Shown in pieces: positions 40,288 to 43,267 of a stretch of 64,000 nt of DNA (its first letter is position 1; the number at the start of each line of letters is the position of its first letter). The position numbers and the translations under genes are program-made. The DNA is from Bryobacterales bacterium KBS 96 (GTDB taxonomy: Bacteria > Acidobacteriota > Terriglobia > Bryobacterales > Bryobacteraceae). The notes below the pieces were generated by a model. That model saw nothing but the letters and a program-made list of their open reading frames with translations, was not told the origin of the DNA and made no database searches. The stretch covers positions 6,058,462-6,122,461 of the forward strand of contig KB906767.1 in assembly GCA_000381625.1 (NCBI GenBank), in the 5' to 3' direction.

Positions 40288-40452
40288 TTCAGAGAGCTAC
40301 CCGTTTTCCGGCTTCATGCTACTCGGGAATGTAAGTTGTATCGCTGATCTCCTTCGGAAGCTTACGAAATTCTCGTGTGACAAGAATTTAACAAATTATC
40401 CTGTACGAAATTGTCTCTTTCCGATTACACTGTAGTCGGACCAAGGAGTCAC

Positions 40453-40881
40453 ATGGCCTCGAGTATTCGGAAAGCGTCGGAGTTGGAGTTCGAACTGGCT
40501 CGTGTTTTGCTGGTGGACGACGACCTGACCTCGCGGTTGACGCTGAAGACGGTTCTTGAAGCCGGCGGGTATGCTGTTGATTCGGCGGCTTCGGCCGCTG
40601 AAGCTGTCGGAAAGTTGGACGCGAGCCAGTACGAATTGGTGCTGAGCGACCTGCAGATGGAATCGCCCGAGGCGGGGCTCAAGGTTCTGGCGCATGCCCG
40701 GCTCATGGATTACAAGCCGGCGACGGCATTGTTTACCAGCTATCACAACAGCCAGCCCGACCTCCGGCGTTCGGTGCTCATCAAACCGGAGGATGTGCCC
40801 GGATTACTCGGTAAGGTTGCCGACCTGATCAGCCAGCGGGCTGCCCGGATTGTTGCGCGCCAGCTCCGCCGCGTGAACTAA
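40453..40881 (+). CDS. Single-domain response regulator
   Basis: 142 residues, one receiver domain after a short N-terminal extension. LLVDDDLTSRLTLKTVLEAGGY supplies the acidic pocket, VLSDLQMES the phosphorylated Asp, and ALFTSYHN the switch Thr/Ser. The conserved Lys fits VLIKPEDVPGLLGKV. No output domain follows; the C-terminus is a basic helix (ISQRAARIVARQLRRVN). ATG at 40453 has AAGGAG 4 nt upstream. No kinase is encoded next to it. The 165-bp gap upstream shows no certain promoter. Confidence 0.88.
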   Translation: MASSIRKASELEFELARVLLVDDDLTSRLTLKTVLEAGGYAVDSAASAAEAVGKLDASQYELVLSDLQMESPEAGLKVLAHARLMDYKPATALFTSYHNSQPDLRRSVLIKPEDVPGLLGKVADLISQRAARIVARQLRRVN

Positions 40882-40927: not shown

Positions 40928-41860
40928 ATGGATGTTCCGGCGCCGAGTCTTTCTCTGTTCCCTTATCGGCTGTTCTTCCAGGCATCTGAAGCTTTAGAAT
41001 TTCCCGACGCCGGCGCGAGCAATCTGATTCGCGGCGCTCTTGGGACTGTTCTGCGAAGAGGGGCCAGCGACAACACGGGGACCACGCCGCTGGCTTATTC
41101 CTGGCTTTTTGCACCGGTGCGGACCGGCGGAGCGAGCGGTTTCGCCGATCCGCCACGCCCATTTGTGTTGCGGGCGGCGACGCTCGATGGGCAACGCATC
41201 GAGCGCGGCGAGTTCTTCCACTTCGATCTGCATTTGTTCGAGCACCGCGAAGAGGCGCTCCCGCAACTTGTGCTGGCTTTTAGCCAGCTTGCGCGGGTCG
41301 GCCTTGGTCCGCGTCGCGCTCGCGTTGAGTTACGGTCCGTTGAATTGCTCGATGAGACTCGCCAGCCGTCGCTGACGGCTTTTGCGAATGGCCGGATCGC
41401 GGCGAACAGTCCACGCCCCCTCGTCTTGTCGCTCTCGGGCAGGATCGCGTCGGCTTCGCGGATACATGTCGCGTTTGCCACGCCGACGGAGCTGAAGGGT
41501 GACGGAGTTCTTGCGAGTGCTCCCGAATTCGGCATTTTATTCGCGCGATTGCGCGATCGCATCGCCGCCTTGTGCAATCTGTACGGCAGTGGCCCGCTTC
41601 AGATCGATTTTCGAGGAATGGGCGCCAGAGCCGCTCAGGTGCGCTTAGTCGATTCCGAACTGGAATGGCACGCCAGGGAACGGCGCAGTTCGCGAACCGG
41701 TCAAACGCACCCACTCGGAGGATTTACCGGAACGGCGGCTTACGAGGGTGACCTTGCGGAATTTTTGCCTTGGCTAAGCGCCGGATACTGGACCGGTGTT
41801 GGACGCCAAACGGTCTGGGGCAAAGGAGTTATCAACCTGGTGCAAGACCGGCAGCCGTAG
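40928..41860 (+). CDS. cas6: Cas6-like CRISPR RNA endoribonuclease (orphan)
   Basis: RAMP-fold protein of 310 residues. The C-terminal domain has the Cas6 hallmarks: QTHPLGGFTGTAAYEGDLAEFLPWLSAGYWTG followed by the glycine-rich loop GVGRQTVWGKGVI. The N-terminal half begins PYRLFFQASEALEFPDAGASNLIRGALGTVL, the first ferredoxin-like strand and helix of this group, and FAPVRTGGASGFADPPRPFVLR is also typical. Cas6 cleaves precursor crRNA within repeats. No other cas gene and no repeat-spacer array was found in the 64 kb, so it is an orphan here and may serve a distant locus or another RNA. No good ribosome-binding site precedes ATG 40928. Confidence 0.85.
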   Translation: MDVPAPSLSLFPYRLFFQASEALEFPDAGASNLIRGALGTVLRRGASDNTGTTPLAYSWLFAPVRTGGASGFADPPRPFVLRAATLDGQRIERGEFFHFDLHLFEHREEALPQLVLAFSQLARVGLGPRRARVELRSVELLDETRQPSLTAFANGRIAANSPRPLVLSLSGRIASASRIHVAFATPTELKGDGVLASAPEFGILFARLRDRIAALCNLYGSGPLQIDFRGMGARAAQVRLVDSELEWHARERRSSRTGQTHPLGGFTGTAAYEGDLAEFLPWLSAGYWTGVGRQTVWGKGVINLVQDRQP

Positions 41861-41899: not shown

Positions 41900-42301
41900 A
41901 TGCCCCTGGCGAAGCTGCTTCTTTGGCCGGTTGCGATACTGTTCGCCGCGCAAATTCAGATTGCTGCTGCTGCCGATCTCACTCCCGGTCTGAAACCCGG
42001 GATTGACCGGTTCGCACAGATGCACAGCGGAATCACCCCGGAAGCGTCAAAAACTCTGGTGGCAAACCTGCCGCTTTCGATGTTAGCGCCTGGTGGGGCG
42101 CAATTAGATTTGCCGGCTCGCGGCTGGTGGGCAGATTCTAACCCAACTGTGTGCGCCATCCCTCTGCGGGAGATGCGGATCGACCATCCGGAGCGGTTCG
42201 CGAGCCGGGCAGCGGAATTTCCGGGAACTCGCGATCCAATGCCGCGGGCCAAAGTGCCGGCCCCGATTTGTGACGCGAAGTTTCTAGCCAGTCTGCGGTA
42301 G
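41900..42301 (+). CDS. Hypothetical exported protein
   Basis: 133 residues beginning with a signal peptide (LAKLLLWPVAILFAAQIQIAAAA). The mature part is Pro-rich with no recognised domain (GGAQLDLPARGWWADSNPTVCAIPLREMRID and a terminal APICDAKFLASLR); two Cys could form a disulfide. GGGAG precedes the ATG by about 9-10 nt. I do not recognise the family; relatives with a short Pro-rich secreted form are common in Acidobacteria. Confidence 0.72.
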   Translation: MPLAKLLLWPVAILFAAQIQIAAAADLTPGLKPGIDRFAQMHSGITPEASKTLVANLPLSMLAPGGAQLDLPARGWWADSNPTVCAIPLREMRIDHPERFASRAAEFPGTRDPMPRAKVPAPICDAKFLASLR

Positions 42302-42334: not shown

Positions 42335-43267
42335 ATGACGAATCACGCATCTGCGCTCGATCTTTGGCCGCCACTGGCTTGGGACGAATGGAAAGAGACG
42401 GCTTCCACTCTTCACATGTGGACGCAGATCGTAGGTAAAACGCGCCTTGCGCTCACGCCGCTCATGAATCACTGGTGGAATGTGCCTCTTTATGTGAGCG
42501 CGCATGGTCTATCCACCTCGGCAATTCCTTACGAAGGCAAGCTGTTCGAAGTCGAATTCGATTTCGTTCAGCACCAGTTGCATGTTCGCGTAAGTTCCGG
42601 AGCGGCCAGGTCGGTCGCGCTCCGTCCTCAGTCCGTCGCGTCATTTTATGACGAATATATGTCGCTGCTTCAATCGCTCGGCATCGAAGTGAAGATCCAC
42701 GCCACTCCCGATGAAGTCAGCGACCCGATTCCATTTCGCCAAGATGATAAGCACGCTTCTTACGACGGCGAGTATGCTCATCGCTTCTGGCTGATCCTTT
42801 CCCGCGCCGATGTGTTGTTCAAACGTTTCCGAGCGCGATTCCTCGGGAAATCGAGTCCGGTGCATTTCTTCTGGGGTAGTTTCGACCTGGCGGTGACCCG
42901 GTTTTCCGGCCGTCCGGCGCCGCCGCGACCAAATGCGGATGCGATCACGCGCGAGGCTTACTCGCACGAGGTGATCAGCGCCGGGTTTTGGCCCGGCAAC
43001 GGTGGATTGGGCACAGCGGCGTTTTACTGCTATGCCGCGCCGGAACCTCCCGGCCTCGATCGCCAGCCCGTCTGGCCGGCGCAGGCGTTCTATAGCAATG
43101 AATTGAAAGAGTTCATCCTCAAGTACGACGATGTACGTGCGGCAGAGTCGCCAGACCACGCCCTAATGGAATTTCTGCAGAGTTCGTATGAGGCCGCGGC
43201 GATCCTGGCCGGTTGGGACCGCATGGCGTTGGAGCGCTCCGTCTGTCTGGAGAGCGCAACATCATGA
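42335..43267 (+). CDS. DUF5996 family protein
   Basis: 310 residues, soluble, no signal peptide. The opening LWPPLAWDEWKETASTLHMWTQIVGKTRLALTPLMNHWWNVPLYV is the distinctive DUF5996 pattern, and the sequence FFWGSFDLAVTRFSGRPAPP and ISAGFWPGNGG are further conserved blocks. Many conserved Trp/His suggest a binding pocket, but the function of the family is unknown. GAGGAGC lies 4-10 nt before the ATG at 42335. The upstream gene ends 33 bp before, so the two may be co-transcribed. Confidence 0.9.
   Translation: MTNHASALDLWPPLAWDEWKETASTLHMWTQIVGKTRLALTPLMNHWWNVPLYVSAHGLSTSAIPYEGKLFEVEFDFVQHQLHVRVSSGAARSVALRPQSVASFYDEYMSLLQSLGIEVKIHATPDEVSDPIPFRQDDKHASYDGEYAHRFWLILSRADVLFKRFRARFLGKSSPVHFFWGSFDLAVTRFSGRPAPPRPNADAITREAYSHEVISAGFWPGNGGLGTAAFYCYAAPEPPGLDRQPVWPAQAFYSNELKEFILKYDDVRAAESPDHALMEFLQSSYEAAAILAGWDRMALERSVCLESATS

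What the first reader, a model, noticed from the sequence alone, without database searches (positions are those of the whole stretch)
40928..41860. Orphan Cas6 without array or other cas genes
The C-terminal GVGRQTVWGKG loop and the preceding GGFTGTAAYEGD block identify a Cas6-type nuclease, but the 64-kb window shows no repeat-spacer array and no other cas gene. It lies between a single-domain response regulator and a small exported protein. It may process crRNA from a remote locus or have been recruited for another RNA.
Basis: partly seen in the sequence, partly recalled or inferred. Interest (0 to 1): 0.6.

Follow-up and report, generated by a model that had tools for sequence, protein, structure and literature searches.

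The report
Solitary family-wide Cas6 without cognate array
A CRISPR RNA-cutting enzyme sits alone on this soil bacterium's chromosome, and most sampled members of its family keep it along with a remotely encoded CRISPR complex that has no spacer array, so parts of an immune system may have become standard equipment.

Summary
The ORF at 40928-41860 is a real, full-length Cas6 (Pfam, PADLOC, predicted fold). The window has no array or other cas gene found, but the genome does: a type I-G operon with array and Cas5-6 fusion, and, about 3 Mb away, an array-less five-gene Csm (type III-A-like) operon. In 200 family genomes, 172 match this Cas6 (164 strongly) and 182 the Csm2-like marker; in a phylum sample the marker is strong only in three genomes, all of this family. 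Copies of this Cas6 beside arrays face one repeat type, CCCC-N8-GGGG-AYTGARA (11 of 11 arrays). Arrays of that type without a Cas6 nearby occur in genomes whose only Cas6 gene lies elsewhere, in one case on the same contig about 295 kb away. The solitary Cas6 is therefore most likely a trans-acting crRNA processor. The window's genome has no copy of that repeat signature, and 60 of 200 genomes keep Cas6 and Csm with neither Cas1 nor the signature, so a further, array-independent role, perhaps with Csm, remains open.

The parts
40928..41860 (+). solitary Cas6 (310 aa) of the family-specific group with invariant H261
   Evidence: PF10040, PADLOC Cas6; signature in 57 of 57 group sequences; Cas6 fold
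40411..40881 (+). receiver-domain (response regulator) gene ending 46 bp upstream, same strand; possible operon partner
   Evidence: same order only in the same-genus genome G001 among the loci (many of them short)
41900..42301 (+). 133-aa protein with hydrophobic start, no family match, 39 bp downstream
   Evidence: 57% identical and syntenic in G001
42335..43267 (+). DUF5996 gene, 33 bp further downstream, same strand
   Evidence: PF19459, 446.5 bits; syntenic in G001

Best explanation
It is a stand-alone crRNA-processing Cas6 of its family, acting in trans. It is expected to bind pre-crRNA repeats that form a short CCCC/GGGG hairpin followed by AYTGARA and to cut just 3' of the hairpin, leaving the repeat-derived 5' tag of type III crRNAs (inferred from the linked arrays and from recalled Cas6 biology). 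In relatives it would serve arrays that have no Cas6 of their own (co-residence shown, cleavage not shown), and it may also load the family-wide, array-less Csm module encoded elsewhere in the chromosome (inference from shared conservation only). In the window's genome no cognate repeat is present, so there it is either idle between arrays or kept by the Csm module with guides that I could not identify.
For: Cas6 identity and fold. 172 of 200 family genomes match at E 1e-3, 124 of 140 good ones; 164 of 200 at E under 1e-20. Purifying selection: dN/dS 0.21-0.24 against the one same-genus genome. Copies beside arrays, chosen by nearness to Cas1 or seen by chance, face one repeat type, 11 of 11 arrays in 10 loci, lie scattered among solitary copies in the tree and share the group's invariant residues. 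The signature CCCCN8GGGGAYTGARA is in 57 of 200 family genomes, its reversed control in 1. In 13 loci with the signature (L164-L176, picked because no Cas6 match was listed near them) a Cas6 profile finds none; two of them scanned are type III-B with RT-Cas1. In 7 of those genomes (G015, G020, G028, G131, G141, G186, G211) exactly one PF10040 gene exists, elsewhere; in G028 it is on the same contig, 295 kb from the array.
Against: The window's genome has no copy of the signature. 60 of 200 genomes (57 if Cas6 matches weaker than 1e-20 are left out) keep Cas6 and Csm but show neither Cas1 nor the signature; array service alone does not explain that. Of 33 genomes with 3 or more copies 31 have Cas6 (28 at E under 1e-20), which is no significant excess over the rest (p 0.18). 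Two of the 33, G074 and G189, have no PF10040 gene at all. Cas6 and Csm marker: 163 both, 9 Cas6 only, 19 Csm only, 9 neither (p 1.2e-4), but 120, 4, 14, 2 in the 140 good genomes (by hand; p 0.14). In fragmented MAGs 'different contig' does not prove distance. G028 has 106 signature copies, of which 18 lie in the fetched locus; the others were not located. The FGH-position His, recalled as catalytic in other Cas6, is Thr here. No expression or biochemical data.
Confidence: 0.62

Rival explanations
1. Cas6 and the distant five-gene Csm module are two halves of a domesticated, family-core type III machine that no longer depends on CRISPR arrays: Cas6 makes its guide RNA from a chromosomal non-CRISPR transcript, or binds without cutting, and Csm signals or cuts host RNA.
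For: Csm marker in 182 of 200 family genomes, 78 of them without Cas1; Cas6 and Csm without Cas1 and without the signature in 60. Csm subunits are strongly constrained between G000 and G001: dN/dS Csm2L 0.02-0.03, Csm3L 0.04, Cas10L 0.05-0.08, against purB 0.04-0.05 (one genome pair). GGDD in 14 of 16 Cas10L, the xDNPV aspartate in 16 of 16 Csm3L. Both genes absent in the two sampled genus g76 genomes; in genus g8 the marker is absent in 5 of 5 and Cas6 is present only in the two genomes where it lies beside an array, G008 and G159 (three of the five are under 85% complete).
Against: Cas6 is less constrained (0.21-0.24) than four of the five Csm genes clearly and Csm4L (0.15-0.18) slightly; 19 genomes keep Csm without a detected Cas6. 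No shared RNA found: no Rfam match in L066 or the window, no cognate hairpin in G000. The Cas6 residues are the same in array-linked copies, so nothing marks it as repurposed.
Confidence: 0.22
2. Displaced remnant: the gene was left behind by a lost type III locus and is now idle or decaying in this genome.
For: No cognate repeat in G000 and no other array found; single, apparently decayed repeats in some relatives (L146); faster evolution than purB, RR and DUF5996 (0.12-0.13), though slower than the 133-aa neighbour (0.27-0.38).
Against: Intact frame, dN/dS well under 1 against G001; the residues invariant in all 57 group sequences are kept; matches in 172 of 200 family genomes in differing neighbourhoods.
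Confidence: 0.1
3. It serves the genome's own type I-G array in place of or besides the Cas5-6 fusion.
For: Read in one orientation the I-G repeat ends in ATTGAAGC, like a type III tag.
Against: The I-G operon has a Cas5-6 fusion (PADLOC Cas56g 1.6e-78), its repeat lacks the CCCC-N8-GGGG element, and 76 genomes with Cas6 have no Cas1.
Confidence: 0.06

Closest known systems
Cas6 endoribonucleases (PF10040; solved: TTHA0078, TTHB231, S. thermophilus Cas6, Marinomonas Cas6-RT-Cas1)
   Same: Fold over the whole chain, C-terminal glycine-rich loop, PADLOC Cas6 profile over 7-304
   Different: Invariant N32, R207, H261, R293, W297 where six other Cas6 relatives have other residues; glycine at 290 (56 of 57) where those six have His; solitary locus
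Type III loci that use Cas6 in trans (stated for most type III in the 2025 classification, PMC12669027; passages seen only)
   Same: Arrays without a Cas6 nearby and the only PF10040 gene elsewhere in the genome
   Different: Here the trans Cas6 is a gene of most members of one family, kept also where no cognate repeat was found
Type III-A (Csm) effector complexes
   Same: Cas10, Csm2, Csm3, Csm4, Csm5 in one run
   Different: Short Cas10 with no HD match, no array and no cas1 or cas6 in the fetched loci, family-wide presence, strong constraint
Array-less CRISPR derivatives: subtype III-G, HRAMP (PMC12669027, PMC8730458; passages seen only)
   Same: Effector genes without array or adaptation genes
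   Different: Gene content here is an ordinary Csm set, with a detached Cas6 elsewhere

Membership tests
Cas6 | CRISPR_Cas6 domain above curated cut-off | tested here: met
   PF10040 54.2 bits, cut-off 25
Cas6 | Cas6 fold over the whole chain | tested here: met
   pLDDT 90.1; 6dd5_B Z 19.5, rmsd 3.4, 251 aligned; 6fjw Z 18.9, rmsd 3.2, 229 aligned
Cas6 | C-terminal glycine-rich loop | tested here: met
   GVGRQTVWGKG at 290-300; G292, G298, G300 invariant in 57 of 57
Cas6 | Histidine general base (position varies between Cas6 groups; recalled) | tested here: inconclusive
   T40 at the FGH position (His in 1 of 57 group and 3 of 6 outgroup sequences, by eye); G290 where the outgroup has His; invariant H261
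Cas6 | Cleaves CRISPR repeats | not testable with these tools
   no biochemistry; linked arrays share one repeat type, 11 of 11
Cas6 | Cognate array in the same genome | tested here: not met
   0 matches of CCCCN8GGGGAYTGARA in G000; bears on 'acts on an array here', not on Cas6 identity
Type III-A (distant Csm operon of the same genome) | Cas10, Csm2-Csm5 | tested here: met
   Pfam/PADLOC; five-gene run in 15 of 16 other fetched loci
Type III-A (distant Csm operon of the same genome) | Cas10 with HD nuclease domain (frequent, not obligatory) | tested here: inconclusive
   492 aa, no HD family match; Palm2 57.4 bits at 230-361; structure not predicted
Type III-A (distant Csm operon of the same genome) | Cyclase GGDD motif and Csm3 catalytic Asp | tested here: met
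   RGGDD and GADNPV in own proteins; 14 of 16 and 16 of 16
Type III-A (distant Csm operon of the same genome) | CRISPR array at the locus | tested here: not met
   none in L066 nor in L070-L085; repeats in L073 and L078 are tandem repeats of other spacing
Type I-G (C1:1-9782) | Cas3g, Cas8g/Csx17, Cas7g, Cas56g, Cas4-Cas1g, array | tested here: met
   PADLOC, 36-nt repeats

The most novel reading that the evidence does not exclude
This family carries, as core chromosomal genes, a detached CRISPR machine: an array-less, apparently HD-less Csm complex under housekeeping-level constraint plus a solitary Cas6, which together perform an RNA-guided or second-messenger function of the cell itself rather than adaptive immunity, with guides from a still unknown chromosomal RNA.
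Probability: 0.25. Interest if true: 0.88.

Novelty: new variant of a known kind. Interest (0 to 1): 0.6.

Why it matters
Use of Cas6 in trans by type III loci is known as a principle. A Cas6 kept by most of a bacterial family as a free-standing gene, together with an array-less Csm operon that in the one genome pair compared evolves about as slowly as purB, was not found described in nine searches of an open-access paper library. It makes two open questions testable: what keeps CRISPR parts in a genome when no array is there, and whether a Csm complex can work on guides that do not come from a CRISPR array.

Tried and rejected
Conserved operon partners of Cas6: rejected; RR-cas6-133aa-DUF5996 order is kept only in the same-genus genome, other neighbourhoods differ. 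Group signature (H261 etc.) as a mark of a new function: rejected, because array-linked copies carry it too. A monophyletic 'solitary' clade: not found; the backbone of the tree is weakly supported. Known RNA families: none at gathering score in L066 and the window. A conserved ncRNA upstream of cas10L or cas6: only about 66 bp directly upstream of cas10L are nearly identical in G001, read as promoter or leader; the cas6 upstream gap is not conserved. A recurrent CARF effector beside the Csm module: none seen among clustered neighbours; an ExeA-like AAA ATPase follows in 7 of 16 loci (the name is recalled, not scanned). Solved-structure search by sequence: no match for the single protein or the alignment. 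Further arrays in G000: TTGAAA triplets 0; TGAAR triplets 115 against 35 for the reversed control, the I-G array recovered, no other array-like run among the listed rows, which end at C1:5.73 Mb; a three-hit run at C1:2318106 is not an array in the stretch fetched (L235); a de novo scan of the 1.27 Mb held (small overlaps counted twice), which covers C1:5.73-6.69 Mb, found only the I-G array. An array without a TGAAR-type end in the unscanned rest would be missed.

Rows dropped and choices: in the Cas6 tree, duplicates and hits under 150 bits (79 sequences kept); in neighbour clustering, ORFs under 110-120 aa. The 13 signature loci are L164-L176 of the 20 fetched, picked because no Cas6 was listed near; of the other seven, L177, L178, L181 and L182 had no signature copy, L179 (3.6 kb) had copies and no Cas6, L180 and L183 had both copies and a Cas6 hit. 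Eight of the 172 Cas6 matches are weaker than 1e-20 and may be other Cas6 types (for example G122, G167). Genome sets were typed from the listings; eight Cas6-negative genomes not listed were obtained by subtraction (totals checked). In one search, 365 of the genomes without a match are not listed, so their families are not known to me.

Full report
Observation. The ORF at 40928-41860 (+) encodes 310 aa. Pfam gives CRISPR_Cas6 at 54.2 bits (cut-off 25) and PADLOC Cas6 at E 1.2e-72 over residues 7-304; NCBIfam gives nothing. An AlphaFold2 model from an alignment of 29 sequences has pLDDT 90.1 and pTM 0.88; the best solved matches are Cas6 proteins, 6dd5_B Z 19.5 (251 aligned, rmsd 3.4) and 6fjw Z 18.9 (229 aligned, rmsd 3.2). 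The window holds no array and none of ten other Cas proteins of this genome matches it by tblastn.

Genome. The window is G000:C1:6058462-6122461 of a 6.69-Mb genome in two contigs. PF10040 matches once. Two further cas regions were found. At C1:1-9782 lies a type I-G operon (Cas4-Cas1g, Cas3g, Cas8g, Cas7g, Cas5-6 fusion) with a 36-nt-repeat array at both contig ends. At C1:3104354-3109852 lies an operon of Cas10-, Csm2-, Csm3-, Csm4- and Csm5-like genes, with no array, cas1 or cas6 seen in the 20 kb fetched. So 'orphan' is true of the neighbourhood, not of the genome.

Distribution. With the window protein, 35 of 37 family genomes and 1 of 24 other relatives match. In a family sample of 200, 172 match this Cas6 (164 at E under 1e-20) and 182 the Csm2-like marker (124 and 134 of 140 good genomes); Cas1 is in 109. 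In a phylum sample of 396 the marker is strong (E under 1e-55) in 3 genomes, all of this family, and weak (E 5.4e-4 to 5.6e-7) in 8 genomes of other families; the rest have none, most of them unlisted. Fetched Csm loci show the five-gene run in 15 of 16 other genomes (not in L082, G057, of another family), Csm3L 69-94% and Csm2L 68-96% identical over the aligned part, with no Cas6 match in any of the 16 stretches.

Two states of the Cas6 gene. In at least 14 genomes a copy lies within 8 kb of a Cas1 match on the same contig, one of these Cas1 frames carrying stops (lists are capped). Twelve of these were fetched (L114-L125); arrays were found in 9 of the 12, and two of the other three, L117 and L120, end at a single signature copy at the contig end. 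With L086 (two arrays), the 11 arrays with resolved repeats all contain CCCC-N8-GGGG-AYTGARA; two arrays of distant relatives (L059, L062) share GGGGACTGAAA but not the CCCC arm. Copies L126-L133, away from Cas1, show no array in 8 of 8 stretches (L126 is at a contig end and close to a linked copy in the tree). Among earlier Cas6 loci arrays appear in 2 of 28 (L032-L058, L064) and 1 of 20 (L086-L105), with overlap between the sets and some short contigs. In the tree of 79 sequences linked copies are scattered among solitary ones, with a weak backbone. All 57 group sequences share N32, R35, K190, R207, R211, R252, S254, H261, R293 and W297; six other Cas6 relatives differ at 32, 207, 261, 293 and 297, and have His where the group has G290 (56 of 57). 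Because linked copies carry these too, they describe this Cas6 group, not a new use.

Trans service. The repeat signature occurs in 57 of 200 family genomes (reversed control: 1); 33 have three or more copies, all 33 have Cas1, 31 have Cas6 (28 at E under 1e-20), no significant excess over the rest (p 0.18). Of 20 loci fetched, the 13 picked for signature copies without a listed Cas6 nearby (L164-L176) indeed show none by profile. Two scanned with PADLOC are type III-B with RT-Cas1 (G028 L164, G015 L166). A PF10040 search of 19 genomes finds exactly one Cas6, away from that array, in G015, G020, G028, G131, G141, G186 and G211. G028 is the cleanest: array at C40:307915-309360, only PF10040 gene at C40:604 kb, 295 kb away; its other 88 signature copies were not located. 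In the fragmented assemblies a separate contig does not prove distance. This fits a processing enzyme acting in trans. Against it: G074 and G189 have repeats and no PF10040 gene.

What keeps it here. G000 has 0 signature copies. Of 200 genomes, 60 (57 with the stricter cut) have Cas6 and Csm marker but neither Cas1 nor a signature copy; G168, with a 9.48-Mb contig, is one, with Cas6 and the five Csm genes and no array in the two 20-kb stretches. Between G000 and G001 dN/dS is 0.21-0.24 for Cas6, 0.04-0.05 for purB (3' part), 0.05-0.06 for the response regulator, 0.12-0.13 for DUF5996, 0.27-0.38 for the 133-aa protein, 0.02-0.03 for Csm2L, 0.04 for Csm3L, 0.05-0.08 for Cas10L, 0.09-0.10 for Csm5L and 0.15-0.18 for Csm4L (one pair). 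Cas10L keeps GGDD in 14 of 16 and Csm3L its xDNPV aspartate in 16 of 16; that this is the RNase aspartate is recalled. A bond between Cas6 and Csm is suggestive only: 163 both, 9 Cas6 only, 19 Csm only, 9 neither over 200 genomes (p 1.2e-4), but 120, 4, 14, 2 in the 140 good genomes (by hand; p 0.14).

Verdict. Shown: a true, conserved, solitary Cas6; the repeat type its group faces in relatives; arrays of that type with the only PF10040 gene elsewhere; an array-less Csm operon in most of the family. Inferred: cleavage, trans service, loading of Csm. Not known: what it does in G000. The published view that most type III loci take Cas6 in trans (PMC12669027, passages) covers the mechanism; the family-wide free-standing gene and the array-less Csm core were not found in nine paper searches.

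Noticed in passing
L066 8355-13853 (G000:C1:3104354-3109852): Array-less five-gene Csm operon; its Csm2-like marker is in 182 of 200 family genomes and most of its genes are about as constrained as purB in one genome pair; the more surprising find of the two.
   Followed up: partly
L067 1-9782 and L068 19680-20000: Type I-G operon with Cas4-Cas1 fusion; its 36-nt-repeat array lies at both ends of contig C1, consistent with a circular chromosome cut within the array.
   Followed up: partly
L164 8972-11598 (G028): Type III-B locus with RT-Cas1, a CARF-TM gene and a neighbouring frame that PADLOC matches to both SIR2 and CARF models.
   Followed up: no
L066 9481-12360: Csm2L carries an RG-rich N-terminal stretch and Csm4L a long acidic C-terminal tail (by eye).
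   Followed up: no
L066 13854-13920, upstream of cas10L: About 66 bp before the cas10L start are nearly identical in G000 and G001, more than the ORF further upstream.
   Followed up: partly
L070, L072-L076, L083, just downstream of csm5L: An ExeA-like AAA ATPase gene follows the Csm module within about 115 bp in 7 of 16 loci (name recalled).
   Followed up: no
L146 (G067), around 1263: A single repeat copy with degraded neighbours, apparently a decaying array.
   Followed up: no
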